Made by a program: the position numbers and the translations under genes | Shown: piece by piece, positions 5,173 through 47,342 of the stretch | Layout of the letters: each line of letters starts with the position of its first letter | How positions within the stretch are numbered: the stretch's first letter is position 1 | The notes under the pieces: model-generated | Told to the model about the DNA's origin: nothing | The model's input: only the letters and a program-made list of their open reading frames with translations | Databases searched by the model: none | Assembly (NCBI GenBank): GCA_014905825.1 | Contig: JACGCN010000005.1 | Location: forward strand, 2,046,001-2,110,000 | From: Lyophyllum atratum | Taxonomy: Eukaryota > Basidiomycota > Agaricomycetes > Agaricales > Lyophyllaceae | Direction: 5' to 3' | DNA length: 64,000 bases

Positions 5173-5229
5173 GTCGTTTCCTTGTGGCCTATTTACGATC
5201 GTTGTCGTACAATATACCTGGATATTTTC

Positions 5230-17536: not shown

Positions 17537-18232
17537 GTTTGACAGGTCACAGGTGAGCTGGCTGGGTCAATGGGGTGTTACGAAGCCGTCGAAATGTTTT
17601 CCTGGAGATGACTCAGGTGGCAGAAGGCGGATCCCGTTTCGAATGGTGGACAATGGCCAGAATCGCGTAGACGGAGCAAGGGAGTGTAAGGGTCCGACCG
17701 GCCCTGGGTCCATCAAGCCATCTCACTTTCGTAAATGTTGTCGAACACCAACCCTACTGAGGTGTGATAAAGGCCTCAAATCTGTCATCGGCCTTCGTCT
17801 ATGTAAAAATGTCAAGCAAGTCGGTCGTTACCCTCAGCTCTGCCTCTGTGGTTGTGATCATATAGCAGAGAGTAGATCATACTGTATGAGCAACATATGA
17901 GCGCGACCGCCGACTTCGGACCTCTCGACATTTTAGACTGACGTAAGCCCGACACGTGGGCGTTCCACTGGTTGACCCTGATGTTGCGCACCTCCGACCT
18001 CGATGAGCATTGACCATGATAAGCCTAGGACGTGCTTGTGTTATCGATCCTACCACTGCTCCATCGATCCGAGTGGCCTCACTGATGTGAGGAAGTCGAT
18101 CTGTACGTGTGAGATCAACTCACGAAGCCAGAGGAGTGGTGTATAATTACTACAGCTTTGGAAGGCAGAATTCATGAAAATATCGTGGTACGTTGTACAA
18201 TAATGATCGTAAGGAGGTCATAACAAAAGGGC
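17537..18232. other. Upstream flank of copy 3, duplicated before copy 4
   Basis: Bases 17,540-18,000 align with 20,570-21,020 upstream of copy 4. Shared strings include GTGTTACGAAGCCGTC, CCACTGAGG/CCTACTGAGG and CATCGGCCTTCGTCTATGT. The tandem duplication therefore includes at least 450 bases beyond the gene. No gene is seen. Confidence 0.65.
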
Positions 18233-27881: not shown

Positions 27882-29087
27882 TCACATATGAATCGCATGA
27901 ACGCGGTGCTTCGCGGCAGTGGAGGTTCTCGATAAGCAGCCCATTGTCCGCAGAAACCCGCATCGAGCCCTTCCCATCAGTCTACCTTTTTGCCGCCAAA
28001 CGCACGAGGCCGAAAGCGCACTTGGAGTTGTCCTCTGGATGTTCGGGGGTAAACCTCGTCTTCCAACAATTGAAGAGCTCAGGCAGCCGTGAACCGTTGT
28101 GCGATGTTTCGAGTTACGATGCTGTCTAGAAATGGTGCTAGCATGGGAACATCTGGAGTCATATGCTGAAATCGCGTCAACTAATGTCATGCATTTATCG
28201 AACTGAAGATCTCACTCCATATTCCATGCATAGCAATGATCCCAGAGCACCAACATCCCAAGCGAATGGGTCAAAATCGAATTCCCCTTGACAGGTATTG
28301 AGCAGCACACAACCGGGTGTGCCCTGCCAAGACTTTCGGTAAGGGAGACGACACTCCTCCAAGGAACGCGATTCAGGGAACTTCGTAGAGAGGTCAAAAT
28401 CGAAAAGTGCATAGGTCAGATGCCCTTCTGAGCGTAGACGTATGCGGAAAGCGTTTTCTGGTCCCAACTGGCTCGTCCAAAGTGGTTAGTAAGTACGTTT
28501 GCGCGGCTTATGTCCTAAAGATGCAATTGTTATCATAAAAAACAGGACGGTGGAAAACACTTACCCCATGGGCGATTTTATGTTTGTGAAGGAAGTTCAG
28601 CCCCTGAGGGATAAAAGATCAGTGCGGAAAGTTGAAATGAAATTTTAGAGCATAGGAATTTCAGACTTTTAACAGGCAATGTATGATTTCGAGAACTTCA
28701 TCCATGGTGGAGGGAGGAGGTCGAGCCCAACTATCGCCCCACCCGTTCTTATGCTGAGCCATACACCCAAGGCTCATTGCATAATCAATATGACTCGCCT
28801 TGGCATGACAGTAAACCATAACTCGCCAAAGGGGAGCAATTCAAGTACAGGAATAACATCATTGAAATCTTCGCGGGACACGGAACTGCCTTGGTCGTGG
28901 AGAAATCGAAGGATGTCATACTCGTGACTGGCGTCGTCGACTATTTTGATAGCAACATGCCGGTGTTGTAAATCTTGGGCATAGAAAACCTTTGCCTGGG
29001 TCAAGTAAGCTCGAGAAGCAAAGCTGGAGTTCGACAGAGCCTCAGTGCTCACTGAATGGTATCATTGGTATGCCACCAAAGGGGGTA
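27882..29087 (-). pseudogene. FDFD kinase-like gene 1, 3' part, cut by transposon
   Basis: Minus-strand gene whose first exons lie at 46,805-47,140, across the 17.7-kb element. This part starts PPLVAYQ at the insertion point, then FYAQDLQHRHVAIKIVDDAS (VAIK lysine), VIPVLELLPFGELWFTVMPR, LTYALFDFDLSTKFPESRSL (DFD replaces DFG), and QGEFDFDPFAWDVGALGSLL. The last exon reads HMTPDVPMLAPFLDSIVTRN but has two in-frame TGA stops (after RFTAA and after KKVD), and another TGA follows PPLVAYQ. Its closest relative is gene 2 (48.7-50.3 kb). The stops suggest decay after disruption. The family is kinase-like; activity is unproven because of the altered motifs. Confidence 0.8.
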
Positions 29088-29088
29088 C

Positions 29089-29104
29089 ATTTTGTCGGAA
29101 ATTC
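29089..29104 (+). repeat. Left terminal inverted repeat
   Basis: ATTTTGTCGGAAATTC; matches the reverse complement of 46,789-46,804 at 13 of 16 bases. The subterminal palindrome GGGTCATGACCC follows at 29,169-29,180, with a related GATCATGACC at 29,189-29,198. Confidence 0.65.
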
Positions 29105-29350
29105 CCGTCTACGGTCATTTTCGAGCCGGATAAATAACAACCATGATTAGAACTGCGATTAGATAGCTGGGTCATGACCCAATCGGGCGATCATGACCGG
29201 TTGAGATGGTTGCGATCAATCAACTCTAGATTACACGTGTCTCTCGTTCAACTTAAGAGTTCTCACTTGCTCGGCGCCATCTGCCATCTGACTCTCCCAG
29301 GCATCTCTCTCTAACTGCCAACATCTCCACTCCACTCAACCTCGAAGAAA

Positions 29351-32300
29351 ATGTCGTCGAAAGAACCGTGTCCCCATTGCGGCGACTCATTCTCACGCAG
29401 AACGATGTCAACACACATCGCAGCCTGTGTTGGAGGCCGCGAATCGAGAAAGAAGCAAAAGTCTCAAGCCATTGGCGCTGCAAGGGACGCCCAGCAGGCA
29501 GAATCCGAACCCGGTGAGTACTCTTCTGCAAAATCAATCCATGACCTCATAACCAATCAATGTAATTCAGAATATATCCCACCGAGGCTCGCGGCGACCT
29601 CAAATCGGCGCTACAACAATCCAGGTACGCATACAGCACATATTATATTCTTTTACTTGATCTTCTTTTGAACCAGAGCCCGGGACTAGCTCGTCGATTC
29701 AGCCAATACCCGACACATCTGAATCATACACGCAACCACGACTGTTGCAATCCCGAAGACAGGAAGCCATCGTTGGTTCGTGCGAGAGTGACCAGCTCAT
29801 TTGTGTCTTGCTGACGCAGTCCTCCAGCACCTGACGCCGATACCGCCGATGATAGGTATCGCCCCCCACGTTTGAAGGCTTCAACATGCAAGCCAGGTAA
29901 AGTGCACCTCAATTCTACATTTAACTACTGACTGATGAGCGATTATGCAGTTTCAAAACCTCAAAATGCTATTCCCAGTGCAGTCGGAAGGCAATCGCAG
30001 GATAGTGGTGAGTTCTCACCCACCATCTAAAAGTGAAAGCGCTTAAAACTCACATCATACACTATTTAATATCAGGCCGAGAGCCCCTTGCACCGACTCA
30101 ACCGCGAGCTCCGCAGCGTGATGACTTTCGCACGACTTACCACCCGTCATCAGGTCGCGGCAGTCGCATCGAAACCTTTGGATCGAAGAAAGCAGCGAGC
30201 TCTGTACCCTTCCTCGATCCCAAGCCTTGGCTCCCGTTTCGTTCCCAGACGGAATTCAAGTTCGCCGAAATTATGTTGGACTCTGCCATGTCCAACAAAC
30301 ATGTTGATGCACTCATCGACGTCATCCGTGCGCTGAGGGATGGTGACGAGGACTTTGTTGTGGAAAGCCACAAGGACCTTGAGACACTTTGGTCATCAGC
30401 GGCCGGGATGCATGGTCTTTCACCGGTATGTCTGGTCCCACCATTTTTCAAGGCAGCTTTTTCATACATCATTGAAGTTCGAGCCTCACATCATAACGGT
30501 CAACTATAAAGGCGAACCCAGGTCTTTCACGTCTTGGCAGAGGCCATTCATGTCATGGATACTCACCTGTCTAGAGGACAAATACCTTGGGAGCGTGTGT
30601 GAGTGGGATGCCATCAAGACGGAGAAGTTCGACGGGAAGAAATGGGTGCAGTTTGTTACACAGCCGTTTACTGGAAAGCGCTTGTGGGATTTTCGTTCAT
30701 CATCGCTGTTCAGTAGTGTTCATTTTTTCACGCTAACTGCTGGAATATAGTCAAAAATTCCGGCGGACGGCCATCCCATCGGGATCACACTATATGCTGA
30801 CAATTCGGTGGAAAGCAAGGGTACCCCATCATGGCAAATCTCACTAACTTTCCTGAAGAGATTCGCAATAGCCATGGGCTAGGCTCGACTCAAGTCGTTG
30901 GCTGGCTTCCTATCGTACGCGTTTGTTCTTCCTTCCAGACTTTTGTTGACTCAACTTACTCCTGTGATAGGTACCCGAGGAAGAAAGCGAAAAAAAGTCG
31001 AGTCCCGACTTTGTCGACTTCAAGAAGGCGGTTTGGCATGCATCTTTTAAAAAGCTTCTTGAAAATGTGGCAGAATTCTCAAAGGTTGGGATACTTGTCA
31101 ACTGTGGCGATGGGGTGACACGTCGCATATATCCATTCATCTTTCTTTTGGCTGCCGATTACGAGGAGCAGTACGTCTTTTTGTAGGTTTATTGTAACCG
31201 CCTGTCGTGACCACTTTGTAGAGCAATCATGACCTTGACACGTGGGGTCCAATCCAAATTTCCGTGCCCAATCTGTTTGGTACCAACAAAAGACCAGGGA
31301 AATTTCCTTTTGACATACCCGTTAAGAACAGGGGAGGGATCAAAGGCGTTAGTCGTGAAATGTATGAAAATGAAACCTAAGGCGGCGGAAGAGAAGTTGA
31401 AAGAAGAGAGTCTTCGACTCGTATATGTGAGTTGCATTTCATAAACCACCAAGCTTCGTTCGATGTTTAATGTGATGATGATGAACAGAATGCTTTTTGG
31501 GACGTCAACTTTTCTGGCCCTCACGAAGCTATTGGGTTTGATGACCTGCATGTCAATGATGGTGGTGTTGGTGGAAGACATCTCTGGCCCTTGGTTGTAG
31601 CATTTCTTCACAAACTGGGTGCGGATGCAAAACAAAAAGTCGATGACCAGTAAGGCATACCTATGTGTCTTGATATTCCTTCTTCATCTGATCACTGAAA
31701 TAGAGTAAAGGCATTGCCTCGATGGTCAGGTTTATCTCACTTCGATAATGTTGTTTCGGTCTCGTTTTCTGATGGAAACAAATGGCGGGACATCCTGAAG
31801 GTTTGCACAACTTTTGAGCATTGCTTTGCTGTCCTTATTCCCCAGTGCACAGCTTACGATTTGCATCACACACAATGTGCTGACTGAGGACCTCGCACCA
31901 ATTGGATATGTGGTCTTACGCTGTGTAAGGGCATATGTCGATGCAGTCATGTGGGAAAACCTCCCAGTGCACACTACAGAAACTATTGCGGCTGGGCGGA
32001 AGGCGGTTGAACGTCTTGGAGCTTGTATGATGGTAAGATAAGACTGAACTAAAATGTTGTGTTTCATTAATGATATTTGGGCACAGGAACTTGATGAGGT
32101 CATGCGCGAAGATGGTACATTTTCCAAGAGCTTCGACTTTCCGAAACTTCATGCACACAGGCATGTCTTCGACCTCATATTAGCAATGGGCGCTCTCTGT
32201 CATTCCACTACTCGACTTTTTGAAGGACGTCATATCGCTCTCAAGAAGTGGTATCAGAACAAAACCAATTTCAAAGACACAGAAGAACAGGTATTCTTTT

Positions 32301-33194
32301 AATGACTCTGAATTGTGGCTGGTTCATTGACGCAGGGCCAGATTCTAAAATACGAATTCTTCCGGCTTGTGGCCTACACCGTCAGTAACTACGTTCAACG
32401 GAATTGTATTGATGGTGGGCTCGAGTCTCGTGGACTGGACCCAGCCGACAAGAAGGATTCCCAGACGGCCCAACAATTTAACAACATTTATCTTGGCGCA
32501 CCACAGAAGCACACCTCATTCTTCAAATTGGAGGAAGACAATCACAAAGATCCAGCTTTTCACGGCTTCCGTCATCGTGTCCAGGAATCGCTCAACAACA
32601 TTCTCACTCGAGACGACAGCCCAGTTCAGTTGAGTGGCAAATTATCAATATCCCCGAATGCCTACGTGAGTGAGCCTTGCCATGGAACCATGGACTTCTG
32701 TGTTAACTTGTTGCATTAACTTGTTGCAGTTGACAGAGTATCGATTCATAAAGGCAGATTTCGAATCTCAAGTGGATTGGCGAGCCTACACAGATTATCT
32801 TCGATGCAGCCCAAGCTTCCATCATGCTCCAAGATACGATTGCGTTCTCATCCACAGCAAACCCAACAACTACTTTGCTCGCTTGATATTTGTCTTCACT
32901 TATAACGTCCCCTCTCCTCATGATGACACACGGTCGCATGTCCCAATTCCTATGGCCCTTGTGCAACCATTCGCCACCATGAAGGATATCAAGAAAAAGG
33001 ACGTCGAACTACGACTACTTCGTTTGAAAGAAGATTCACGAAAGGCTTCCATCGTTATTCCTGCGCGGTCAATAATTCGTGGGGCGTACATTGTTCACGA
33101 CAATGAAACCGATAGAGGAGGGATGGTGATTGATACCGTTGATGGTGATATGTTCCTTCGCATGCAGGACATGTTCCCTCCTTCAGACGAATAG
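29351..33194 (+). CDS. Plavaka-type transposase (CACTA-like), with small deletion
   Basis: A multi-exon gene. It starts MSSKEPCPHCGDSFSRRTMS, a C2H2-like motif (CPHC...H). Later blocks are typical of basidiomycete Plavaka transposases: SSVPFLDPKPWLPFRSQTEF, FAEIMLDSAMSNKHVDALID, GITLYADN, YPIMANLTNFPEEIRNSHG, VGWLPIV, RRIYPFIFLLAADYEE, CPICLVPTKDQGNF (CxxC), FWDVNFSGPHEAIGFDDLH, LPRWSGLSHFDNVVSVSFSD, and EDLAPIGYVVLRCVRAYVDA. The end is FLRMQDMFPPSDE. After LYADN the frame changes to FGGKQGYPIMANL; the usual Lys-Thr and Leu-Ser-Ser residues between are missing, so a short frameshifting deletion near 30,820 is likely. The protein would cut and join the ends of this element. It is probably inactive as it stands. 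Confidence 0.85.
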
Positions 33195-33499
33195 AATAAT
33201 AATAGAATAGAGAATAGAGAATTGTATTCGAAAGGAAAAAGGATCGATACAGAGATACAGATATAAGTACACTATGAGTACATGGTGCAGCTGCTACGCA
33301 TGCGATGATTTGTGATTACGGTTGCTTCTGAGACTTCTAAACCACGAGTGAGACAAAAAAAATTGACACTTCTTGAGTAGAGCAAAGACTCACAGAAGAG
33401 GCTCGTGTTGTGCGCCTTGGTTGGATGGGACTGGGGCTGGGGTCGGGACTCAGTAAAAATGTCGATGAGACGACTGGGCTTGTAAATACGACGCGTGGC

Positions 33500-33630
33500 T
33501 CGGGTTGTAGCTGATCCCTTGGCTGCTCTGGTTGCGCCTGAGCCCTTGGCTGCTCTGGTTGCTGCTCTGGTTGCGCCTGAGCCCTTGGCTGCTCTGGTTG
33601 CGCCTGAGCCCTTGGCTGCTCCAGTGCCTT
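33500..33630 (-). repeat. Tandem repeat coding for Gln/Pro/Ala units
   Basis: About four copies, one shortened, of a 27-base unit (CTGCTCTGGTTGCGCCTGAGC on the plus strand). On the minus strand one frame reads EQPRAQAQP repeats. It lies just beyond the stop codon of the DUF6698-like gene and may be the decayed end of its tail or a stand-alone minisatellite. Confidence 0.7.
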
Positions 33631-33680
33631 TGAGGTCTGTGCCGTCTCCAGTGCCTTTGAGGTCTGTGCCATTATGCTCT

Positions 33681-35294
33681 TCACTGTCTTCTTTGCCGCT
33701 TCGGAGCCTTCGGAGCCGTTGAAGCCTTTGGAGCCGCGCGCGACGACGACGATTTGGATGTTTTCACAGCGATGGGAGGATCACGTGCAGACCTGGATAC
33801 TGGGCGAGACGAGGGGCCAGCAGGGTTAGGTAGAGGCAAAGGAGCAGATGATGACGGGGTGGGTGATGAGGCTGGTGATGAAAGGTGGAATTCGGCAAAA
33901 TTGCCGGTAACGAGTCCGACATCCAGATCCTCCTCCTCGTCACTCAGTAAGATTATTTGAGGAGCGTCGAAATTTAGTTCCGGTTCATCTTCCATAAGTA
34001 CGGGATTATTAGAGTCTGACCGTCCTTGGATACCCCGTCCAACAAAAACTGTCTCTTGACACAGATCGCTGAGTGCGCGGCCCGCTTCGGACTCGCCTCC
34101 AGGAACTTGAGGTGTGATCAATCTGCTCCACTGGATCCGATAAACTTCGTAGGTCTTTTCCCAGTCGTGTTTTGTGACCCTATTGCCGTGAATGTAGTAT
34201 CGGGGGAGAGAAGAAAATGAATCTGCGAGTGCCAATATCAGAATCAAAGTACCAAGCAAAATGAATTTCTGATGGCTTACAATGACGGCGATGCATGGGA
34301 TTGCATCAGTGGGCAGATCCGGGGCTGACTGAATACCCCACTGGATGCCATAAGTCGCTGATGTTGGGCTTATCTGCGGATTGTGGTACAATCGCAGCTT
34401 TGCCAAAGAGAAGTCCTTTCAGCACCTACATATAATGAGATTCCTTGATCATCTGATAGACAATTTCGCTCACGAGCATGATGATCTCTGAGCGGAACAT
34501 GTACACGGAATATCCAGCTTTCCAGTTGCCAGTGGCCCGTACAGCACGCGGAAATAGGAAAGGTGCTATGTTCTGGATCGATCGAGGTCTGTCGTTCGGG
34601 TCATTTGCGAAGTCGGACAATGTTGGGTTCTTTCTCGCGATGGAACGATGGCTGTAACCATTCCGCTGGAATGGATGGGACAATCGAGAGAAGTTCACGG
34701 ATCCTGTCGACTAAGGTACTCCGCATGTTTTTGGCGGCTTGCTTGATCTGAGCAAATATATATGTGTAGCTGAGTAGCTATTCCTTGAACAGTATAGTCA
34801 CTTACCTCCTTCTGATAGGTTTCTTGTGTGATGTAACTGTAAAGCGTTGCAGGAAATACTTCGTACATCGTCGCCAACCACCCTTTCGCACGAGCACGAT
34901 CATCCACGAACCGACGAACAGGGTCCAAGAATTGCGGGGATGGACGCTTTTGAGACATCAGCAGCTGGTATCCATGGCCAAAATGTGAGCTAAAGGGTTC
35001 CGCAAGGGCAGTGAATTTTTTTGCATAGAGGCGAATGTCGGCAAGGGTCTGGTCTGCGTCCGACAGCTTCTTCGATGACTTCGACGTCGTCGGCTTGTCG
35101 TTGCCAAACAGTCCCTCCAGATCTTCGTATTTCTTCTGTAATGCATCGTGTTTCAGTTTCAATAATTCCTTTTCTCGATATAACGCCTTATATCCTTCGC
35201 GAGCTGTGCTGAGCATGAGTTGTGTGGCTCTCAGGGCCTGGATTGGGGACTGGGTTAGACCTCCATCTATCTGAGGGAGTACGATATCTGACAT
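33681..35294 (-). CDS. DUF6698-like accessory protein of the transposon
   Basis: The ATG at 35,294 gives MSDIVLPQIDGGLTQSPIQA, a coiled-coil stretch (YREKELLKLKHDALQKKYED), FTALAEPFSSHFGHGYQLLM, FVDDRARAKGWLATMYEVFP, then after an intron IKQAAKNMRSTLVDRIRELL. A different frame reads PNDRPRSIQNIAPFLFPRAV, so one frame change near 34,640-34,680 is not explained by an intron. After that come AKLRLYHNPQISPTSATYGI, a Ser/Pro-rich region and a basic C-terminus KAPKRQRRQ. The layout (helical N-terminus, NDP...APFLFP block, basic tail) recalls DUF6698, a family known only from agaricomycetes; this link is from memory and tentative. Its location inside the element suggests a transposon accessory role. 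Confidence 0.55.
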
Positions 35295-35416
35295 ACACTA
35301 GTCAGTTCTTTGATTTTTTGTTGCCGAATGGATTGCGGTGTGGTGAGCCTTGTCTGGTAGTTGTGAGTGTCTGTGTCAATAGTCACGTAGATGATATGTG
35401 AAGAACGCTCACTTTG

Positions 35417-35836
35417 TCAGCTGTTAGACGTTGAGGGTTGAGGGCCACTAGATGGCATTTTTGTAGTGCCTGCCTTGCCCTTGCCCTTCCAGTACATCAC
35501 GGATCCATCGTCCCAGTGATCGTGGATACCCTCAGGCTCGTCGTCATCTTCAGATGGCGGAGCCTGGTGGTGACCTGATTTCGACAGTTTTTTGGTACTC
35601 GCCTTGCTCTTTCCCTTCCCCTTCCAGCCCGTCACTTCTTCAACCTCATCGGAGGAGTCGTCCCCGGCCTCATCAAAATCGAAGACCTCGACGGAACCAG
35701 CATCACTGCTGTCAGCCTCCCTATTGCTGAATCGATTGCCTTGTAGATTGAGATCGGCGGTAGCAGGACTATCGAATGGATCAAAAGGATCGAGATTGTA
35801 GTTAGAGCTTTGAACTAGACGACGTCTACTGGGCAT
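35417..35836 (-). CDS. Small acidic/basic-repeat protein, 139 aa
   Basis: A single uninterrupted frame starting MPSRRRLVQSSNYNLDPFDP (ATG 35,834-35,836) and ending TSNS at TGA 35,417. It has an acidic stretch (FDFDEAGDDSSDEVEEVTGW) and two related motifs, GWKGKGKSKASTKKLSKSG and YWKGKGKAGTTKM, separated by a Glu/Asp-rich segment. A longer upstream frame reaches 35,911 but the MPSRRR start looks best. It lies 120 bases upstream of the DUF6698-like gene on the same strand. No known domain. It could be a DNA- or chromatin-binding accessory factor (inference). Confidence 0.5.
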   Translation of the reverse strand: MPSRRRLVQSSNYNLDPFDPFDSPATADLNLQGNRFSNREADSSDAGSVEVFDFDEAGDDSSDEVEEVTGWKGKGKSKASTKKLSKSGHHQAPPSEDDDEPEGIHDHWDDGSVMYWKGKGKAGTTKMPSSGPQPSTSNS

Positions 35837-35911
35837 TTTCAAATGAGGGATCTTGGAGACTGAAGCACAGTGGATGGCATTCATGTAGAGAGGCAGGCAA
35901 AAGCTTGACAC

Positions 35912-37726
35912 AGCTGTTAACTTCTCAGCGCTTCCTTTCCCTTTCCTTGTGAAGAGATCCCAGCTGGAAGTTCCGAGATCTATTTATAGATTGAGGTTAT
36001 ACAAAGTCATTTGGGTGGAAAAGTTTTGGGAATTTTTGAAATCTATTTATAGAGGTACCCAAAAAATGAAGAAAACGCGTGACCTCACGTGACCTGCGTC
36101 GTCTGTACCATTGATTATGTAATGCTCTCTTTTCCCAGCCCTGTCGGAACACGCGCACTACCGTCGCAGAACCTGTTACTTTTCTAATGACTTCCTTACT
36201 TCGCAGTGACATATTTAGCAATAGTCTTTTACTCATCAGTGAGTATAAGACTTTCTTTCACTCTTCCCATGAGCATGAGTAATCACTCATTTAACGTAGT
36301 TGACGCTGCTGGCTTTGGTGCATACCCTACTCCGTGTTCCTCACTGCTTGTTTAACATATCCTGACTTCTCTCCTAGAATTTTTTCAAGCATATATATTT
36401 CATCACAAAATCTACCATTCACTTCGTCTTGGTCCAAGAAGCGCAGATGGTCGGTCATGGGATATCGTCACACCCATGTACGTCACTGACCAACCCTCCT
36501 TCATTAACTGTGCTTGCATCATGCGTCGCTCTCATGACTTAAGCGGCGCTAATTCACACTGCCAAATCCTATCTCAGATTGAAACCAACATCTCCCCTGT
36601 CCTTCTACTCTGCATTCTGAAGAATATGGAAAACTACCGTTGGACGCACTGCCTCAGCTCCTGACGGACCGCAGCTGTGGATGTGGATATTGTGTTCTAC
36701 GGAAGTGATGTGGTAGATACGAGGCCCAGCAAAGATCGAAAAACCCTGGACAATCCAAAAGGACAACTCGTGGTTCCCCTTCCTAGCATGGTGGTGCGAG
36801 AGTTTGTGCTCCGGCCTTATGAGTAGGTATTTTGATATCCCATTCTCAACAGCTCCCATCAATAACTATGCAGTATGACTCCCAATTTTGTCCACAGGGA
36901 TCCCCTTTGGACAATGGAAACTACTGGATGATCTCCCGGAAGAAGACCTCTCGATGCACAGAGTCGTACCTTCCCCTTGTTACCCATTACCAACAGATCA
37001 AGCCTGGCCTGATGGTGTACAGAGTGCACCCCCGACTCTAACCCGCAACAACTCCCCAACCCTACAAAAAAGTTCTTGTTGTCATACAGCGCGTACGGCG
37101 GTGAGTCGATCATCCTATCATCACGAAGAAGAGACTGAAACACGGCCTGAAAGACAGCTACGGGTTACACTCAGAATCAGCAGACACTGAAGCTTCGATC
37201 ATCAATATTGGTGTTTACTTAATGAAACCTGGGGCCAACTTTGTTTCAACGGACGACATTCTATGGTCCAGATGAAAGCTCTCGCTTGTGATTGCCATTC
37301 CTGTCATCCTTGTGCACTCGCGACGCGATGCTGGTAACAACAAAGACTATGACATGTAAGGCACAGGGCCGGGAGCGGTTATAGAGTATGGGGTATCCAG
37401 GCAGAGCTTGGCGACAAAATTGAATGTATCGTCAAAGGCAGGGGTGGCATTTGGCACTGGATATTCATCATGGAGTCGGATGGACCCTGATGTCGGATTC
37501 AGCTAAACTGTGAAGGGGAATCCGGAAGTTTTCAGGGATGCGTCGAACATTGTCACCAATGTGAAATACAAGGCAATTCATAGTCTTTGCCGCTGCTCAC
37601 ACTCTACCCTTGAACTCACGTCAGCCCACTTTCCAGTACGATTTCGAGGTCCATCTCGAGTACAACACCTTCCTACGTTGCCAGTGGCATTCGTGTTTGA
37701 CTGCTGCACACGAACCATTCAATATT
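35912..37726. other. Unassigned cargo region
   Basis: Plus-strand fragments such as DIVFYGSDVVDTRPSKDRKT, VVPLPSMVVREFVLRPYE (36,680-36,835) and IPFGQWKLLDDLPEEDLSM (36,900-36,960) look protein-like but lie in several frames with stops. They may be one more decayed captured gene that I cannot name. The stretch 35,930-36,450 is AT-rich and shows no ORF of note. Confidence 0.35.
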
Positions 37727-37734
37727 CATGAGTT

Positions 37735-38357
37735 TAGTGTTGTGCAGGGTCTGGCTTGGAAGCCTTGAAGCCCGGAAGCCCGCCCTACTTTGGGCCGAGC
37801 CGAGCCGGCCTTTGGTTGGGCTTTCCAGGGCCCAAGGCTCGGCTTCGTCTTTTCATGAGCCTCCCCAAGCCCTCAAGCCCGGCCCACCGTCGACGAGAAG
37901 ATACACACCTCTTATTGGCCTTTTCCATCAAGTTACTTTGTTCCCGGAAGCAAGATCAATCAACGACCTTGCATATCAACCAAGGTAAGTGCACCTGAGT
38001 CGGACTGATCTCACGCTATACTTACTGTATGAAAATCCCACGGTAAGCACTGAGTCTGAGGATGAGGACGTACCCTTGTGAGATGATCCGGGTGCGCAGG
38101 ACGGTTTAGATATGATTCTGGGTGATGATGTTGAGGAAGACCTTTGGTTGTGAGTCAAATCATTGAATTTTTGCGGTACAAATTTGAAGAAAATCAAGGT
38201 CCCTGTTGCGCTCAGAAGCCCGGGCTTGAGCCCTGCTAGCCCCAAGCCCAGCCTGACTGAGGGCTCAGGGCTCGGCCCAACATAGTGATAAGCCTCGACC
38301 CTCGAAAGCCCGACCCAAGCCGGGGTTTTTGAGCCGAGCCGAGCCCACACAACCCTA
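37735..38357. mobile_element. hAT-like MITE, 623 bp, with 8-bp target duplication
   Basis: Flanked on both sides by CATGAGTT (37,727-37,734 and 38,358-38,365). The left end reads TAGTGTTGTGCAGGGTCTGG and the right end, reverse-complemented, TAGGGTTGTGTGGGCTCGGC, a good inverted repeat. Subterminal regions are full of GGGCTCGGC/GCCGAGCCC-type words. An 8-bp duplication and ends of this kind fit non-autonomous hAT elements. The ORFs inside (for example 37,728-37,988) are by-products of the repeats. It is nested in the 17.7-kb element. Confidence 0.85.
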
Positions 38358-38365
38358 CATGAGTT

Positions 38366-40690
38366 CCATTCCTCTGTCTTCCGACCTTACGCCAACGCCG
38401 CGACCACCAGACCCTGACCACGGCACATGAAGTGCATGTGTTGCGGGGCACACATTATCGCTTCACCCTGCTGCCACGGCCCTGGAGAGCACTTGTCCAA
38501 AGGTGCCAGCGGTCGCTGGAAGGCTCCTCACAGAGCTTCCTTCTGCTATGCCTTCAATGGCTCTATGTCATGCGCGAGTTGACTCCGCGTTTCTAAAGAA
38601 CCTGTCCGTCCTGAGGACCGAACTGTGAGGCGGCACTAGGCGAACAGGCGCGAGGGCACTTATATTCTTTTTACCAGACAACGCCTATGCTTTTTCCTTT
38701 TCGAGAGTAGTCACGAGTCACGTCACACTTAGCTACAAGTAGGATTACGCTACATGTGAGAAATCTATCATCTTTACACCAATAGCCTTTACTTGAGTTT
38801 TAACTCGAGTTTGTGGGCTTCCGTGTGTTCAGACCCTACTCTCAGAAGACTCGAGATATCGAATCGAACCTATCCTACCTCCCTATAGAAGCTCACTCGA
38901 GGCCTTTCCCGAGAGAGAAGGTCTGTTAACTCGCGGCCTTTCCCGGGTGACCAGGCCGCTGTTCTATCAGGAGGGTACGTAGTCCCTATTCTGCTATCTC
39001 AGGTCGATACACCTTTATTCTCACTACGAGCTCGCCGGGACCCCTTCGTTGGTCGATCAACCCACTCGGAACCCCGTCAATCATAGAAACAGGTTCCACA
39101 CGAACTGCCACCGCACTGCTCGTCAGCGGGCTCGTCCACTTCGACGGCTGTCTGAACTTGGCACTGGCCCTGCGCCTGGTATTTCTGGCCTCGTGGCAGG
39201 TGCTATCATATGGATCTATCTAAGTAAACGGAGGTGTCAAGGCCCTCTTTAAGTGGGTCGACGTCTTCATCTTCCTCTATTGCCCAATCATATCCAGTGT
39301 AATGGCAGCCCGTTTACACCTACGAGGGGTCCCTTCATGGAAATCATTCCTGGGTCCCATCCTCGCAAGACGAGAAGTCGTTTTGCGGCCTCCGTCAGAC
39401 TTATGTATTTCGCGCCAAGTTCGCTCTGAAATAAGAGCAAACAATGGCTTTGAGGAAAGGAAATATTCTGTTGAGATGTCCATGACAATACAAAAGCTTG
39501 AGTCGGACGGATTTCACATGTCTATTTGATGAAGTCAATTCATGAAGTCATCTCCAGTTCACAACATTGGCTGAACTTAACCACACACCATTGGATGAGT
39601 TACAACAAATGATTGTTTTGGGGTAGATTTGGCTCGATTGACTACCGTTTGGCTTGAATAGGCTCAATTCCGCCGCCCGACCGACTTTTCACTGGGCTTG
39701 AAGCTTGAAGCCCCCAGATCTAGATCTCGGTCACGCCATGCTCGCAATGGCCCATACTCGCACGTAAATGAATGACGTCACCTCACCACACCGATGATTT
39801 TTCATATTTGTATCCTCTTGAATCAGCACCTTCTGTTTTGGGAGTGTCACGGCGGGCGGCAAGACAAGCTGGTTGAATCATACACAATACCATACAAGGT
39901 GGTCTACGTGCAGTAAATAGATTCAAGGAGTTTTGACCGAGGAGGTTCGAGAGAAGGGGCGGCAATTGGTACCTGGTACCTGGGTACTGGTAGGTGCAGC
40001 GACATTTGACTGTGGATCACTTGTAGATGGCTGGACTGGTGGGGACTGGATGTGGATGTCCATGTCTGACACATCCGCGCGCCAGAGGGAGAGGCCAAGG
40101 CCATTAGCAGTGCCAGGTGGGAGCGTGGGAGGGCAGTGCCGGTGGGAGAAGTGCCGGTGGGAGCCAGTGCCGGTGGGAGCACAGTCGGTGCGAGCAGTAG
40201 CGCCGGTGACAGTGACAGTCGTCTCGAAGAGGTAGAGGTAGAGGCGCTGCATTGGCGTTAGGGAACGTTGTTGTATCCTTGACTGAAATTCTGTGGCTCT
40301 GTCTCCGTAAGTCACATGATCACCCTAAAGTCGACTCTGGGCAAAGGATCGTCTGTACACAACCCGGGGGGGCTACAGCTAAGCTCCAAATAGTGATCAA
40401 TCATGGATATGAGACCCATATTACTCTTTTTAAGCACTCATGTCGTACGTCCCATGAGTATGAATGACCTTTAGAAAGGGATTTCCGGAGGTGCAATAGT
40501 CACATGACTGTATGGCAGCAGGCGGCAACGACAGAGGAAGCATTCACATTCCCGAGGATTGCATCAGCACAAGGTGTGTACAGAGGTCCTCGCTCGGGTT
40601 TCCTTGCTCGGGTTTGTTGTCCTTGAGAGCATCAAGTAGGAATGAGGTCGCAAGTTGGGTCACGGTTGGATCATGTGTTGAGACCAATGA
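38366..40690. other. Cargo region without a supported gene
   Basis: No coherent gene. Two near-repeats of a CTCGmGGCCTTTCCCGrG word at about 38,896 and 38,934 and the downstream reading hint at an old retroelement piece, not proven. A separate GC-rich repeat at 40,128-40,200 is listed on its own. Confidence 0.35.
40128..40200. repeat. Short tandem repeat, about 16-bp unit
   Basis: Three good copies and one poor copy of AGTGCCGGTGGGAG plus two variable bases. No gene context; it makes an ORF on each strand that is not believed to be coding. Confidence 0.7.
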
Positions 40691-40699
40691 AAAGATATC

Positions 40700-42370
40700 A
40701 ACAACCTAAGGGCAATAGATATACCGTAAGACGAACATTCGCGGCTTATGTGCAAGGGCGAAATAACATACCGCCCAACCAACATCGACCAGTGGCCGGA
40801 CTGACGGACTGACTCGTTGTTGGCAAGGGCACCATATCCAGAACGGGATCTGCGCAATGCTAGCGACAGTACTGCACTTCGCCTTAACATAATAGGCATC
40901 TGTGTCCCACCGGAACTTGTTTGTAAGTTTGAGGGTCTTCGTCTCCGTGAACACGACGAAGGTCGCAGAGAAGTCAAAGTCGTCCGTGGAGAGCGCGTCG
41001 GTCGCTTGGCTCGGAGGGGAGGGTGTATTCGAGGGAGGAGTCGACTGGGGAGATTTTGGTGGAGTAGAGGGGACGAGCTCGAGTGTCTGTGTTCGAGTGT
41101 CTGTGTCTGAAGTCATGGTTAGAATTTAATTGTACTTTAGGATGTAAGACGGTGATGACAAACCTCGTCTTTCTCTTTCGCCTTCTTGAAGGTGGAATCA
41201 ATGTCACCCTCAGGTTTCCATACACGGGGAACACCCTGGTCGTCATAGCGGAACGTTCGTCAGAGTGTGCATGGCAGCTTTCCGAGGATGATAGGGTCTG
41301 CGTCTGCCGTCTATTCGTAAATCTTGGCACGCAAGGAGGAGAGACAAGATCGTTTCCAGAGATGCGAGTCCATGCAGAAGCGACACCATCGGGGGAGGGC
41401 GGTGAAAGCGAGATCGAAGTAGTCGGACACAATTGGCGGTCTTGGTCGGTGGGTTTAGCGAGACTTTTCCCAGATTTGGTTGAGGTCTGCCGTGAGGGTG
41501 GCTTGGAGATTGGCCGAGGGCGTCTGGCCGATGTGGTCACGAATCACGAAGAAGTGTGCCGGCCGTGAATTCTAATGGACAGAGTGGGGTTCAGCTCATG
41601 CTAAGGGGAGAGGGAGCTCCATATACCCGTTTTGTCTGTCTTCTTTCCAAATAGCCCGAGGTTGACTTTGACTTCGAAGACAGTTTCAGAAGTTCCATGT
41701 TTGCGTGAAAAATCCAAATCGGATGGCAGGTATCAGGATCTGAATGATATAAATAAGGGTCACGCATAAGTACCTGGTCCTCCTCGCCGCGTTCGTGAAC
41801 GTTGGTTCCCTCGGCATCCATGACCATGACTTCATATCTTTCCCGCGAGACATCCAGATACCTGACTTCCGGTTAATTATGACATTCAGGGCCTTATTCA
41901 GGGTACAAGGCCCACCTTTAGTGGTCTGCTTCTGTCTCGTCTCGTCCATCATGCTCTCGTCCGTCCATGACGTCGAAGGTCGTTCCAAAACGCCTATTGA
42001 GTAATGTACCTGCCACAATGACTGAAAACCGTGATTATGGACAGGTTTCAACACCCTACTACTTCCCATAGATTGTGAACCGAATACAGCGCGACATTGT
42101 ACTCGAATCCACCTCCCGAAGGCCCCACCAGTCGATCTGAGTGCCCAGGTCGGGCCTAACCATAACAGCATGTCAGTACAACAGCAATGACAGGAACACT
42201 TGGACACTTGCCTGGGCAAGGAATCTCTAGGATCAAGCACAGCGCGCGCGCTAATCATTGAATTAAATCGAATCGAAACGTACAAAGATAATCCGAACAG
42301 TGTCGGGTCGGGTAACTGGATTGTGGAAACTGTAAGCTGGCATCAAGGGCATGGAAGTTGAAAAAGCAAC
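40700..42370 (-). pseudogene. SEY1: Captured SEY1 (RHD3/atlastin-type GTPase) remnant
   Basis: On the minus strand, blocks of the ER-fusion GTPase Sey1 appear in order but in changing frames: LGTQIDWWGL, GFEYNVA, VFGSQSMGSS (P-loop region; the usual GKS is lost), DESMMDETRQKQTTKG, GIWMSRGKDM, VMVMDAEGTNVHERGEEDQ (GTPase switch region), ANMELLK with [42 protein letters not shown], and FRWDTDAYYVKAKCSTVAS with IAQIP before the membrane part, which is missing. Intron-like stretches with GT and AG ends are kept (for example after TTKG), so the copy came from DNA rather than a spliced transcript. Parts of the middle are deleted. Sey1 shapes the tubular ER; this copy is dead. Confidence 0.8.
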
Positions 42371-42649
42371 GTTACTCCGCTGAGGAAAGCCTGGATAGAA
42401 AGCAGAGGGTGAGTGTCTTCATCTTAGTAGTAGTAGCGCCGGCGAGTCTGTCTTCAACAAATCTCTGCTCGAGAGTCACGTGACCTTACCAAAGATATGA
42501 TCTGACCAAAAACTCTCTCCACAAGCTGGGGGGCCTATGGCTAAGCTCAAACAACTCTCAAAACATGTATTTATCATCTATATAAACCTTTTAAAGCCAT
42601 AAACATATACGTCCCCACAAGGATTAAACATTACTGTCCACCTTGCAAG

Positions 42650-45085
42650 TCACTGACGCCGCTGTCGACTCCTGCCCCTGCGTCTCCTATTGTCATCCTC
42701 GATTTCATTCTGTAACGCTGCCAGTGCAATATGTTTGTCTTGGCTTAACCGACGCTTCTTGATCGGAGGCATTGACAAGGGCGATGACGGGCATGGCGGC
42801 GATGACGAGCGTGGCAAAGAGGGAGGTGGAGGTGGTGAGGAGGAAGGCGGTAGTTCTATGGATAATGATTCGGATGGAGTCCTGTTGGATCGCCATTCCT
42901 GTACCTGAACTTTAAGTAATGCCAGTTTGGTCCGCTGCGCGTTCGACATTGGCTGTTTCCGGTGTCCGCGTTTGTCGAGACCTGCCTTGATGCGCGCAAT
43001 ACCGACTAGCTCACGAACTGCATGGTGAGATGCAATTCCAGGGTCGCCACGTACCGCAGAGAGTCTGAGTGGTGGTGGAACGTGTTAAGCATAAACCAAA
43101 GATGTAAGTAAGTAAGCTGTGAACTCACAGTTTACGGCCATGATTGTCGCGAACAACACGACCATTACCACAGTACTCAAGGGGTCCAATGGCGACACTA
43201 CATGTTTCCTCCACGATCGTCTTGAACAGCAGTTTAGTGCGATCAGCTCCAATCACTGGTTCAATTTCAGTGCTTGTCCTACATAAACTTAGTTACAGAC
43301 ACTTAAAGTCCTTAAAATTGACCAACTCACATTTTCTGCGATGATGATGTCGCACGGGAATTTACGGGATACATGTCCGTGACAGACCAGACCTGTTTTC
43401 TCATCTTGAATGCATATGTTGGTCGTAAGCACTTCAACTGGCTATCTGGAAGCAATGCTGTGTAATGCTTGGGCTTCAGAAACGTTTTGAGTTCCTGAAG
43501 TACTATAATCAATGAGTGAGCCGGAGAGAGCATTGTACATGCAAGAAAACAAGTACTGGATTTCTTGCCGAAGTATGATGACAAGGGATCGGTCGGAAGA
43601 CTGGTGTCACCCTTCATCAGCTGCACCCAAACTTCCTTTCCAAAAATGAGTCGCCCCAGAGGAGGAGGTGATTTCCGATTGAGCGCAGCCACAATGTACT
43701 CGGGTTCGAAGGGGTCGTAAAGTGGTACTCTGTTCCGAAACCAGAGCTTATCCTTCCCACCGAGCTCCTGAAGCTTAAGCTGATAAAAATGAACATCAGT
43801 AGAAGGCCATACAATTTGTTATTGGCTTACTTGATACTCATCGACAAGGACACCAAGTCGAGCTGGCATCTGCACACGATCCTTCGCGTATACATGAAGC
43901 CAATTTTTGTACTTCAAGCGTTGCTCTTTTGTAGGAGCCAGCAGGCCTTTGACCATACAGGGCCTCAGAAGTGATCTAAGGAATGCGTCGTCAGGAATGT
44001 GATAGATTAGAATGTCATAGAATCATACTGAAGCTTAGTATGTGAGCGATGTGCAAAGCACCAAAATGCCTCACACAGCCTCGCACTTCTTGACGGCGAG
44101 TCGAAAACCTCTGCCTCGGTTAAGAAGGGTGATAGCCCTACAATGGTACCCACTGGTCAATAGCTGCAGCCGAAATATGGAAAAAGACACTCACCAGCAT
44201 CAAAAAAAAGTTCCGAAGCTGTATAGACCCCAATACCGCTCCATACGTCTTGAGTGTTACGTACCGCTTTAAGAGCAAGGCCGGTCCTGGGCGCGTCCGA
44301 TCGGCCTTTGATCCACTTCACGACACCTTCTAAAAAGGCAGAGTAGTCATAATATGCATCCGGGGGTGTGATTGGGAGCTTCGCTTTTGTTGTCGTCCAG
44401 ATTGGCTAGTGCATGAGATTAGAGACTGAGCGATATGACGGGGTGGAGACACGAACGAACGTACTTGAAATACCATATCGATAGTGACAAAGGCGATTAT
44501 GAAGTCGCCAAATTCCAGTGCCAGCCCGACACGAAATCCGCGTTCCTGTTATGTCCTGTTATGTAAATACCTATGAGGATGGATACAAGGCACAAAAACG
44601 AACCGATTTATCGATGCCACAAACAGATGTGTACCACACATTTCGGGGGTAAATTTGGACTGATGTATGTGTCAGATAAGAGAACTAGCAAAAGATTCAT
44701 GTGAACACAACGGGTAATAAAACCAATTCAGACTTACCTTAAGAAACAGTTTACCCAGATCTAAAATGACGGCCCTGCCAGTCATGGTGATGTCTTTCAA
44801 AGACAGTGTGTTGATTGAAGGGGGATTTGGATTTTTCCGGGTTTTCTTCCATGTGGGGGGCCACAGGGAGGTCTGAGCACCACTAGTTCCACGAATGACA
44901 TCACAAGTCGCGTCCAGACGATAGACATGTCCATCAGAAGCATTGGAAGAGTTGGCTGCCTCAGTTTTGGAGCCATCAGCCCAGAGAGCAATTAAAGCAA
45001 GAGGAGTCTTGAGCTTCCAGTGCTCATACCACCAGAGAAGCACCAGATAATGGGCCACACATTCTCGATACTGATACTCGGGCAT
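42650..45085 (-). CDS. Intact nine-exon gene, 646-aa protein of unknown family
   Basis: Exons (minus): 44,738-45,085; 44,604-44,684; 44,465-44,545; 44,195-44,405; 44,077-44,137; 43,831-43,975; 43,331-43,779; 43,129-43,278; 42,650-43,064. All splice sites are GT-AG and the exons sum to 1,941 bases, exactly 647 codons with stop. Blocks: MPEYQYRECVAHYLVLLWWY, ALIALWADGSKTEAANSS, RLDATCDVIRGTSGAQTSLW, VWYTSVCGIDKSERGFRVGL, ALEFGDFIIAFVTIDMVFQ, LKYKNWLHVYAKDRVQMPAR, GKDKLWFRNRVPLYDPFEPE, VAIGPLEYCGNGRVVRDNHG. The C-terminus is Pro/Ser-rich, then basic (PPIKKRRLSQD, RRRRGRSRQRR), suggesting nuclear location. I do not recognise the family. No signal peptide or clear membrane helix. It lies inside the transposon among decayed genes, so its intact frame implies recent arrival or selection. 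Confidence 0.8.
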
Positions 45086-45849
45086 GGTGACAATAGCTAC
45101 AACAAGTTGTTTGCTGGCAGGAAACCGATCGGGAGGCGTGTTATTTGTATCTGTTTACTATTTCCCGTGTTCACCTTCTGATTTCGTCCCATCCTCCCCG
45201 CTCCTCACCCTGATGGGACGGTCAATGTTAGTATCTTAAATGAGTTATATAGGCTATATGTATATTCCCTGAGAGTTGTGGACCTTAGCTGTTGGCCCCC
45301 CGGTTTCTAGAGACGGTTCTTTGACCATAGTCGGCACATTTATCACCCTCCGCCTCATGCACCTGCACATCCTTTCCCCCCCTCATATCCTCAGATCGCT
45401 CCGAGTTCCATGAGTCCTAATTAAGTCTAATAGCTAATAGCGATGCTCATGTGTACGAAAATACCCACCCCCTCCCTGCATGAGCACAATCCGGCCAACC
45501 AATTGTGTTCCCCCCTCTCTAGCCCTCTCTCTCTCAGGTTGTGTTCCTCAGGGGGAGATTTGCGCCAGCCATCCAATCCATCGGATTGCACAAAGGCGAC
45601 TCCACGTGGGCGTTGGAGCGAAGAGATGAGGATATCCCATTGATCTATACACACCGTTAAAATATGTCATCCGAACCATGCATTCTGTTACTTACTGGCT
45701 TGTTACTGGCTTGGGGTCAATGAGCGCGATCGAGCGAATGCACGATCGGGTAGTGTTCGATGGCTGAGAAGGTAGAGGAGTGTGTGGGACCGGACCGGGG
45801 AGGGGGGAGATGCAAGAGGTCCAGAGTAGGAGATGCGAGGTCCAGAGTA

Positions 45850-46440
45850 GCGGAGGTGGGCGAGGAACAGAAAACAGAAAATAGGCTTGCCCATCGTGGT
45901 CTTGGTGTGCAGCGACTTGACTTGAGTTCTGTCTGCCAGTGTTTTTTGAGCAGGGAAACAGCGAAGTCAATGCCTGGCAAAGTAGTTAAGTCCGCCTATC
46001 TCGGAAAAATGTGCAGAAAAATACGCACTCAACATACCGTTTCCAAGGACCTGGTCGTCGTTCATTCTGGACGTGGCCGACAGCAACACCCAAGCAGAGA
46101 ACCATCTTGAGCTAGGTCGAACCGACCTCAGTCAGCTTGTTGAGCATAAGACGACTCGGCTGAAGGCGCACCCCGTGCACTTCTTCAAGTCATCAACAGA
46201 CATGTACTCGAGTTGGAGGAGGGGGACATCGGGAGTCTAGTTTTAGAATTAAATGGAGTCTAAAACTATTCAGCCCGAACAAATGAATGCCGAGGACGCA
46301 CTTGACGGTCGTGTTTTTAGGACCGAGATCTGAAGTTCGATGGTCTCCACGAAGTTGCGCTTTTTCTCGCCGTTGGCATCAGCGAGCAGCTCTTTGACGG
46401 AGTCCCGCACATTTGACACTGAGAGTTTGCTGGAACTGCA
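45850..46440 (-). pseudogene. RPL10A: Captured RPL10A (ribosomal protein uL1) remnant
   Basis: Minus-strand reading shows KLSVSNVRDSVKELLADANG and EKKRNFVETIELQI, the start of cytosolic ribosomal protein uL1/L10A. TVK follows directly although the residues between should be longer. Then LEYMSVDDLKK, VLCLGVAVGHV, FAVSLLKKHWQ and a C-terminal piece resembling the usual MGKP ending in another frame. Large internal parts are missing and frames change, so this is a dead fragment. It lies 360 bases inside the right end of the transposon. Conserved ribosomal genes are normally single-locus essentials, so this is an extra, captured copy (inference). Confidence 0.75.
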
Positions 46441-46788
46441 TTTACATCGTCAATGGGCCTGTCCAGACAATTATCCTATGGGCGTCGTACGTACTTATCG
46501 ATAATACCGGAGAAACGACTGTTATGCGAGGGGGAGCGCGTGAATTGGGTACACATACCATATTATCTGCCAGGAGCAGAGCAGTGAAGGCCTCCAGCCC
46601 ATATATCCGCCATGACCTAAGACCTGTTAGCCGTCCACCAGTGTTTAATAATAATCGTTCCAAGCTGGGTAGTAACCGACTGAGCTGAGGAGGACCAGGG
46701 TCGTGACCCAGGTGGCAACCAGGGTCAGGACCAGGGTCCTTGATTCCGTTGACTGATTGTATTAGGAATGGATGTCAACCCTAACCCA

Positions 46789-46804
46789 CAATTTATGACA
46801 AAAT
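46789..46804 (-). repeat. Right terminal inverted repeat
   Basis: CAATTTATGACAAAAT, reverse complement ATTTTGTCATAAATTG. The subterminal palindrome GGGTCGTGACCC lies at 46,698-46,709 and a related GGTCAGGACC at 46,723-46,732, at distances like those on the left side. Confidence 0.65.
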
Positions 46805-47140
46805 TAGCCGGTGAGCTGCCTCCGAGTGTCCACCGTGAATGGCGTACGGGAAGTGGGAATTGATAAGTTCGGAGTTGATGGTGGGAATCGATGGTTGTGA
46901 GGTGGTCGTCAGCCTGTATCCTTCAGCGTCAAGTACTGAGGCGTATAGTGTATAGCCACGTCTTAAGAACCACTGACGCATATAATCCGAATTGAAGATA
47001 GCTGTCCGCTTTTCAATATCGGCGTCATCGCGATGATTTTTCAACTCTTGTTGTATCGTTGACTTAAAATTATCAAAAAGTTAGAAGAGCTCCTACGACA
47101 CATGAAAAGAGTTTTTGGTTACTTCATTGAGTTCATCCAT
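46805..47140 (-). pseudogene. FDFD kinase-like gene 1, 5' part
   Basis: First exon MDELNE (ATG 47,138-47,140), an intron, then STIQQELKNHRDDADIEKR and AIFNSDYMRQWFLRRGYTLY, closely matching gene 2 (MDEPTE / SQSEIQKELKARRDDANIEK). The coding frame runs into the transposon end at HSEAAHRL (CTA|ATTTTGTC). This is the missing front half of the gene piece at 27,882-29,087. Confidence 0.85.
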
Positions 47141-47342
47141 GTTTTCCGTTTGGTGAATAGGATAGTAGCTCCAAGGCCTTAAGTCGCTCCGAACGTATTG
47201 GAGGAATTCGAACGAACACCAAACGAACGCAAGGTTGTGTGGCGGTCACGTTTGTAGCGGCATTTCGAATTGCGAACCTACTGTAATTGTACATACATAG
47301 TATAGGTTACTACTAGTTACAAGCATACTCGGGTACATGTAA

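What the first reader, a model, noticed from the sequence alone, without database searches (positions are those of the whole stretch)
29088..46804. 17.7-kb transposon found by a gene cut in half
The front of an FDFD kinase-like gene (46,805-47,140) and its back (27,882-29,087) are 17.7 kb apart. Removing 29,088-46,804 and one TA gives a continuous codon series HSEAAHRL-PPLVAYQ that aligns with both sister kinases. The same borders carry a 16-base imperfect inverted repeat and, at 80-100 bases inside on both sides, GGGTCRTGACCC. Three independent signals agree on one large element with a Plavaka-type transposase. The size and gene load are unusual for a cut-and-paste element.
Basis: partly seen in the sequence, partly recalled or inferred. 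Interest (0 to 1): 0.92.

Follow-up and report, generated by a model that had tools for sequence, protein, structure and literature searches.

The report
Mushroom transposon carrying repair-like gene
In the mushroom Lyophyllum atratum a gene is cut in two by about 17.7 kb of DNA that has the matching ends and the broken transposase gene of a Plavaka jumping element, together with decayed pieces of unrelated host genes and one gene with an unbroken predicted reading frame whose protein is predicted to fold like a DNA-repair glycosylase; this load was likely moved as one unit with the element, which would make it an unusually gene-rich member of a little-studied transposon group.

The parts
27882..29087 (-). 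3' part of the interrupted host gene (left flank); host sequence may extend to 29,092
   Evidence: collinear with uninterrupted paralogs C77:322238 and C130:49071, 88.5-88.6% over 1,300 columns and with the sister gene at 48.7-49.9 kb
46805..47140 (-). 5' part of the interrupted host gene (right flank); host sequence may start at 46,803
   Evidence: collinear with the same paralogs, 85.4-85.7% over 342 columns
29089..29103 (+). left terminal repeat ATTTTGTCGGAAATT (TGT tip at 29,093)
   Evidence: sequence
46790..46804 (-). right terminal repeat ATTTTGTCATAAATT (ACA tip ends at 46,800)
   Evidence: sequence
29169..29180 (+). left subterminal palindrome GGGTCATGACCC; related GATCATGACCGG at about 29,189
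   Evidence: 5 places genome-wide for the 12-mer
46698..46709 (-). right subterminal palindrome GGGTCGTGACCC; related GGTCAGGACC at 46,723
29351..33194 (+). Plavaka transposase gene, broken; annotated as FPV67DRAFT_1667598 (P0001, 927 aa, mapped at 29,405-33,191)
   Evidence: PF18759 E 4.4e-21; 169 proteins with E up to 0.001; mapping; 16-nt deletion directly after LYAD of the first catalytic segment compared with the C1 copy
33195..33678 (.). element DNA behind the transposase, shared with the C1 copy up to a minisatellite where the homology stops
33681..35836 (-). cargo 1: predicted spliced 631-aa frame, related over 34,234-35,971 to the tandem C46 units
   Evidence: no homolog found
35971..39766 (.). 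nested multicopy repeat, inserted later (no target duplication seen; possibly Helitron-like); 37,735-38,358 and 38,625-39,101 are not matched by the other copies
   Evidence: copies start at 35,970-35,971 and several end at about 39,766; best copies 97-98%; junctions; the C46 relative lacks it
39938..40336 (.). continuation of the C46-related segment upstream of cargo 1
40829..42190 (-). Sey1/RHD3 GTPase pseudogene lacking about 1.13 kb in the middle
   Evidence: PF20428 4.2e-7 (over the cut-off) and PF05879 0.0019 (under the cut-off); relatives C117, C108, C1, C133; intact host Sey1 at C47:7834-9075
42650..45085 (-). cargo gene with unbroken predicted frame: 10 exons, 9 GT-AG introns of 51-64 nt, 644 aa, Fpg/Nei-fold protein starting M-P-E
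   Evidence: exons, stop and protein; full-length relatives; fold
45869..46494 (-). pieces related to a ribosomal protein L1-family gene (probably L10a/uL1; that name is recalled)
   Evidence: DNA and tblastx similarity to C85:188.3-189.2 kb and C64:2695.7-2696.6 kb, which match PF00687; four ORFs of the window piece gave no PF00687 match themselves

Best explanation
The 17.7 kb that splits this gene is a dead Plavaka-group DNA transposon whose single pair of ends encloses a broken transposase gene, a later nested repeat, pieces of unrelated host genes and one unbroken predicted gene, and this cargo was likely already inside the element when it inserted. Shown: the split gene and its empty site in two paralogs, rare matching motifs at both borders, the PF18759 transposase and its frameshift, the two left-end relatives, the mosaic content. 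Inferred: a Plavaka transposase, when functional, bound the subterminal GGTCNTGACC motifs, paired the left end with a right end about 13 kb beyond the transposase gene (about 10 kb without the later repeat), cut out everything between and put it into a 2-bp target in the host gene. Inferred: the unit arose when the left end of one copy and the right end of a neighbouring, diverged copy were used together, so that host DNA between them became cargo. Inferred: the transposase then decayed and the multicopy repeat landed inside. The unbroken cargo gene would encode an Fpg/Nei-fold, possibly DNA-acting protein; whether it served the element is unknown.
For: Empty site in the C77 and C130 paralogs, joined flanks align in one piece. 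End repeat and palindrome each rare genome-wide and present at both borders in inverted arrangement; GGTCNTGACC-type sites occur at 3 places in the 64-kb window, all within about 110 nt of a border. PF18759 in the left module. The left module recurs at C1 (92-95%) and C24 (79-84%). Selection on the transposase in the past: dN/dS 0.32 between window and C1 over 571 codons. The segment 42.2-45.6 kb with its unbroken gene has no DNA match elsewhere in the genome at E up to 0.001 beyond one of 75 nt, and the nearest family member found is about 47% identical, so a surviving source from which it was copied was not found. Pieces of Sey1 and of a ribosomal protein gene lie between the ends. The published Pack-CACTA model joins termini of neighbouring elements (PMC8616336, passages).
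Against: No second copy of the right end or of the whole unit was found in this genome. The C1 copy shares no cargo in the 13 kb read behind its module. In-place growth is proven for part of the length: the nested repeat here and an LTR retrotransposon with identical 187-bp LTRs in the C1 copy. The terminal bases match neither published Plavaka signature cleanly and the target duplication is ambiguous. No donor place with two neighbouring copies was found; none was looked for beyond. The assembly search skips very common words, so 'no match' is not proof of uniqueness.
Confidence: 0.6

Rival explanations
1. In-place growth: an ordinary Plavaka of about 5 kb inserted into the gene, and all other DNA was added later by nested insertions and repair patches.
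For: One large later insertion is proven here (35,971-39,766) and another in the C1 copy. The cargo pieces have different relatives at different places. C1 has the module without the cargo.
Against: I noticed no transposon ends flanking the Sey1 piece, the ribosomal-protein piece or the Fpg-like gene, though I did not test for them systematically; and the Fpg-like gene has no close copy elsewhere from which it could have been duplicated.
Confidence: 0.24
2. Stepwise Pack-type capture: the element gathered fragments of Sey1, a ribosomal protein gene and others by duplication from elsewhere in the genome over several rounds, as described for Pack elements in plants.
For: Pieces of at least three unlinked families sit between one pair of ends; the Sey1 piece is cut on both sides compared with C117 and C108 and lacks 1.13 kb inside.
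Against: The closest relatives found are 79-86% identical in the Sey1 and ribosomal-protein pieces, and the Sey1 ones are broken or partial themselves, so they are not recent sources; the unbroken gene has no source copy. Plant Pack elements rarely hold a whole gene (PMC8616336, passage).
Confidence: 0.12
3. The two halves were separated by a chromosomal rearrangement or a misassembly, and the end motifs are chance.
For: No second complete unit was found.
Against: Both halves lie in the same order and strand next to the sister gene, and two motifs with 4 and 5 places in the genome sit at both borders.
Confidence: 0.03

Closest known systems
Plavaka DNA transposons (PF18759; CMCT clade; PlavakaA and PlavakaB of PMC12730594, passages read)
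   Same: Same transposase family with the ADYEEQ, CPxC, HxxxH and FEGRH segments; short terminal repeat containing TGT..ACA as in PlavakaA; 2-bp target duplication possible.
   Different: 17.7 kb with host-gene pieces and an unbroken gene; tips are not TGT..ACA or CATCA..TGATG with a clean duplication; no TET/JBP match on this contig.
TET-carrying Plavaka and KDZ elements (PMC12730594, passages read)
   Same: A fungal transposon carrying an accessory gene for a protein that might act on DNA bases.
   Different: The accessory is an Fpg/Nei-fold protein, not a dioxygenase, and no recurrent linkage to Plavaka was seen: 0 of the 9 other places with family matches lie within 30 kb of a Plavaka match (nearest 33 kb, C71).
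Pack-CACTA / Pack-TYPE elements of plants (PMC8616336, passages read)
   Same: Unrelated host gene pieces between one pair of ends; end-joining of neighbours is the proposed route.
   Different: Keeps a (broken) transposase gene and holds a gene that looks complete.
Enlarged 16-20 kb En/Spm elements of Chondrus crispus (PMC6431247, passage read)
   Same: CACTA-related element of similar size with extra genes.
   Different: Red alga, families with 4-5 ORFs; here one unit with pseudogene pieces.
Fpg/Nei DNA glycosylases (MutM, NEIL1, NEIL3)
   Different: No Pfam match, no CxxC zinc finger, the position of Fpg Lys57 aligns to a non-Lys residue, long extra C-terminal region; the window copy has two extra residues after M-P-E.

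Membership tests
Plavaka transposon | PF18759 transposase domain | tested here: met
   E 4.4e-21, 75.9 bits against cut-off 26.3, on the spliced model
Plavaka transposon | catalytic acidic residues with C(2)C and H(3-4)H between the second D and E | tested here: met
   ADYEEQ, CPIC, HAHRH, FEGRH readable in the window (which residues are catalytic is taken from the paper's motif description); the first segment LYAD is present but followed by a 16-nt deletion, so the gene is dead
Plavaka transposon | termini TGT..ACA (A) or CATCA..TGATG (B) (PMC12730594) | tested here: inconclusive
   TGTC..GACA is present at 29,093 and 46,800, but the match of the two ends extends outward to ATTTTGTC; other copies start about 29,094-29,096
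Plavaka transposon | 2-3 bp target site duplication | tested here: inconclusive
   TA, AT and TT each possible
Plavaka transposon | more than one copy bounded by both ends | tested here: not met
   left end 3 places, right end itself plus one 104-nt match inside the queried stretch; this limits the claim of a complete family, not the domain assignment
TET-carrying Plavaka | TET/JBP gene inside | tested here: not met
   18 PF12851 matches in the genome, none on C97
Pack-type element | host gene pieces between one pair of terminal repeats | tested here: met
   Sey1 and ribosomal-protein pieces
Pack-type element | target duplication flanking the whole unit | tested here: inconclusive
Fpg/Nei glycosylase (cargo protein) | Fpg/Nei fold | tested here: met
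Fpg/Nei glycosylase (cargo protein) | N-terminal Met-Pro-Glu with catalytic Pro | tested here: inconclusive
   MPE at the annotated start in 12 of 20 members, at residue 286 of the chimeric model for the window copy, absent in 7; two extra residues follow MPE in the window copy, and the structural alignments of the chimeric model start at residue 289, two after its Pro
Fpg/Nei glycosylase (cargo protein) | H2TH motif | tested here: met
   motif pattern in 15 of 20, partial in 2, not found in 3; hhalign aligns it to GVGNIYASESLFAAGIHP of MutM
Fpg/Nei glycosylase (cargo protein) | conserved Lys57 | tested here: not met
   K57 is invariant in the 10 bacterial sequences but aligns with Ile of P0122 in the hhalign alignments
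Fpg/Nei glycosylase (cargo protein) | zinc finger CxxC..CxxC | tested here: not met
   no CxxC in the 644-aa protein; zincless members such as NEIL1 are known (recalled)
Fpg/Nei glycosylase (cargo protein) | PF01149 / PF06831 match | tested here: not met
   neither is among the 25 families shown for the 20 members at E up to 10 (one further family not shown); controls MutM and Nei match both
Starship element | tyrosine-recombinase captain gene | not tested
   no such family appeared in the Pfam scans made, but not all frames were scanned

The most novel reading that the evidence does not exclude
Plavaka transposons of mushrooms can pick up and move a base-excision counterpart of the TET/JBP genes that other Plavaka elements carry: an Fpg/Nei-fold glycosylase, from a family in Agaricomycetes that Pfam does not recognise, which removes modified cytosines (or other marks) from the transposon's DNA and so protects it from silencing.
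Probability: 0.07. Interest if true: 0.92.

Novelty: new variant of a known kind. Interest (0 to 1): 0.6.

Why it matters
Plavaka elements are abundant in some mushroom genomes (PMC8290104, passages) but little studied: 11 papers in the held library mention the name. A Plavaka unit that holds an unbroken host-type gene and pieces of others would show that this group can move genes, as CACTA and Mutator elements do in plants. The cargo gene exposes an Agaricomycete family with an Fpg/Nei fold that Pfam does not recognise. [quoted passage not shown] If the activity is absent, the case still gives an example of transposon-driven gene disruption with a documented empty site.

Tried and rejected
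TA as the certain target duplication: replaced by three candidates. Finding a second right end by DNA, by the palindrome and end pattern genome-wide and by loose scans of the C1 and C24 neighbourhoods: none found. Cargo block elsewhere: no place listed held two adjacent cargo pieces. Cargo 1 protein against the protein database: no homolog at E up to 0.001 among the candidates scored. TET/JBP on C97: none. Places related to the cargo near Plavaka transposases: none adjacent in the lists. Kinase domain by Pfam on fragments: none. Fpg/Nei by sequence profile against PDB sequences: none among 4 matches at E up to 10; by Pfam: none; only fold and profile-profile comparison show it. hhalign control with the Plavaka alignment against bacterial Fpg/Nei: probability 2.6%. 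Viral structure library: three matches with E up to 0.001, all giant-virus Fpg proteins. Transposase in plasmid records: no match. A gene finder run on the reversed, uncomplemented strand also gave a long chain (score 1917 against 2356), so my own gene finder proves little; the cargo gene rests on its relatives and the splice sites. A first dN/dS run included two wrongly framed exons and was replaced, which left out 2 codons that are stops in C1. Size alone is not unique: a Marasmius oreades library held elements up to about 42 kb, kind not stated in the passage (PMC9674265, passage). Of the Plavaka papers listed (10 of 11) no title is about gene capture; two wider searches listed none on captured genes in Plavaka by title; this is one library, listings only. 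A search for Lyophyllum atratum listed 6 papers, none with the name.
Full report
The window lies in contig C97 (2,547,054 bases) of a 64.76-Mb genome. The annotated proteins P0001 and P0121 lie on a contig of the same length and are named Lyophyllum atratum, a mushroom of the Agaricales (order recalled).

The split gene is real. The window's own sister gene aligns to both halves. Better, two paralogs at C77:322238 and C130:49071 carry the gene without interruption and align to the joined flanks in one match of 1,635 columns at 87.8%. Their site reads GGGGGTATATGTAGCCGG. The window reads GGGGGTACATTTTGTC on the left and GACAAAATTAGCCGG on the right. The other two copies of the left end begin to match at about 29,094-29,096. 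The borders are therefore known to about 5 nt, not to the base.

Both borders bear the same signals. ATTTTGTCNNAAATT is found at 4 places in the genome, two of them these borders in inverted arrangement; the other two (C98, C141) look like each other and, beyond the motif, not like the element's ends. GGGTCRTGACCC is found at 5 places: both ends here, the left end of the C1 copy, and two places in C13 and C116 that show no further likeness to the ends. From that rate the chance of the 12-mer in both 200-nt ends is about 2e-10. This ties the two ends, 17.7 kb apart, to one element. A looser local-alignment test of the outer 40 nt alone is only suggestive (15 of 3,000 random pairs).

The left 4.6 kb is a Plavaka module. 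The left end recurs at C1:1633577 (88%) and C24:593553 (76%). The C1 copy follows the window through the transposase to 33,678, with a 12.3-kb LTR retrotransposon (identical 187-bp LTRs, TGCAG on both sides) inside it and 204 and 244 nt of the transposase region missing. The C24 copy stops at about 31,180. The spliced transposase matches PF18759 at E 4.4e-21 and 169 proteins with E up to 0.001, of which 120 were listed. ADYEEQ, CPIC, HAHRH and FEGRH are readable; directly after LYAD of the first catalytic segment the window lacks 16 nt compared with C1, which shifts the frame. The C1 gene is broken too: besides its two gaps, 2 of its aligned codons are stops. Between window and C1, 571 codons give dS 0.092, dN 0.030, ratio 0.32, so the gene was under selection for part of that time.

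The rest is a mosaic. (a) 34,234-35,971 and 39,938-40,336 are collinear with a stretch in four tandem units of C46 at 79-85%; the 631-aa frame predicted here has no homolog in the protein search. (b) Between them sits a repeat from 35,971 to about 39,766 whose best other copies are 97-98% identical and share its ends, with no target duplication seen; C46 lacks it. It is a later insertion, so the unit was about 13.9 kb before. (c) 40,829-42,190 is a Sey1 pseudogene lacking about 1.13 kb; the intact host Sey1 is at C47, and C117, C108, C1, C133 and C80 hold further broken or partial relatives. (d) 45,869-46,494 is related in DNA to C85 and C64 stretches that match the ribosomal L1 family (probably the L10a gene; that name is recalled); four ORFs of the window piece did not match that family themselves. 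(e) Between (c) and (d), 42,190-45,630 has no DNA match elsewhere at E up to 0.001 beyond one of 75 nt and holds a gene with an unbroken predicted frame.

How it probably worked. Plavaka belongs to the CMCT group of transposases; PlavakaA makes 2-bp and PlavakaB 2- or 3-bp target duplications (PMC12730594, passages). A transposase would bind the subterminal palindromes, pair the ends, excise and insert. That the unit has a right end 13 kb beyond the transposase gene is best explained by use of a right end from a neighbouring diverged copy, the route proposed for Pack-CACTA elements (PMC8616336, passages). The cargo gene has no close copy found in this genome, which fits transport better than copying. 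But part of the length was demonstrably added in place, so I give in-place growth about one chance in four.

A link between Plavaka and the Fpg-like family is not recurrent here: the 9 other places with family matches (C102, C65 twice, C64 twice, C81, C80, C71, C67) do not lie within 30 kb of any of the 73 Plavaka matches listed (nearest 33 kb, C71). The anti-silencing reading is therefore a long shot, kept because other Plavaka elements carry TET/JBP genes (PMC12730594, passages) and because in this genome two TET/JBP matches lie 6-8 kb from Plavaka matches (C86; C61, the latter under the family cut-off).

Noticed in passing
G000 C46:1014228-1082655: Four units about 22.1 kb apart in tandem; the fetched parts of the first two are 99.3% identical over 4.4 kb. 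A recent tandem amplification of unknown content.
   Followed up: partly
G000 C86:542747-552128 and C61:99368-107435: TET/JBP matches 8 kb and 6 kb from Plavaka transposase matches (the C61 one under the family cut-off), in line with published TET-carrying Plavaka elements.
   Followed up: no
G000 C102:70277-72792: Fpg-like family member whose exons are 71-88% identical to the Crassisporium protein P0122, while the window copy is about 46% identical to it; P0122 and the L. atratum protein P0124 are 82% identical. Possible horizontal transfer, not tested.
   Followed up: no
window 40547-48169, protein FPV67DRAFT_1779227: The public gene model is a chimera that runs across the element's right border and fuses four unrelated pieces.
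   Followed up: yes
G000 C117:84.3-89.7 kb and C108:723.6-729.1 kb: Sey1 pseudogenes in a duplicated block, 93% identical over 5.1 kb, with no Plavaka match nearby.
   Followed up: partly
G000 C1:1637331-1649617: LTR retrotransposon with identical 187-bp LTRs nested in the C1 Plavaka copy; recent insertion.
   Followed up: partly
G000 C24:594656-595174: A 519-bp fold-back inverted repeat (arms 81.5% alike) sits inside the transposase of the C24 copy.
   Followed up: no
window 2793-5240, 15144-17861, 18215-20888, 21826-23571: Four related copies of a gene-sized repeat left of the element, 66-84% identical, on both strands.
   Followed up: no
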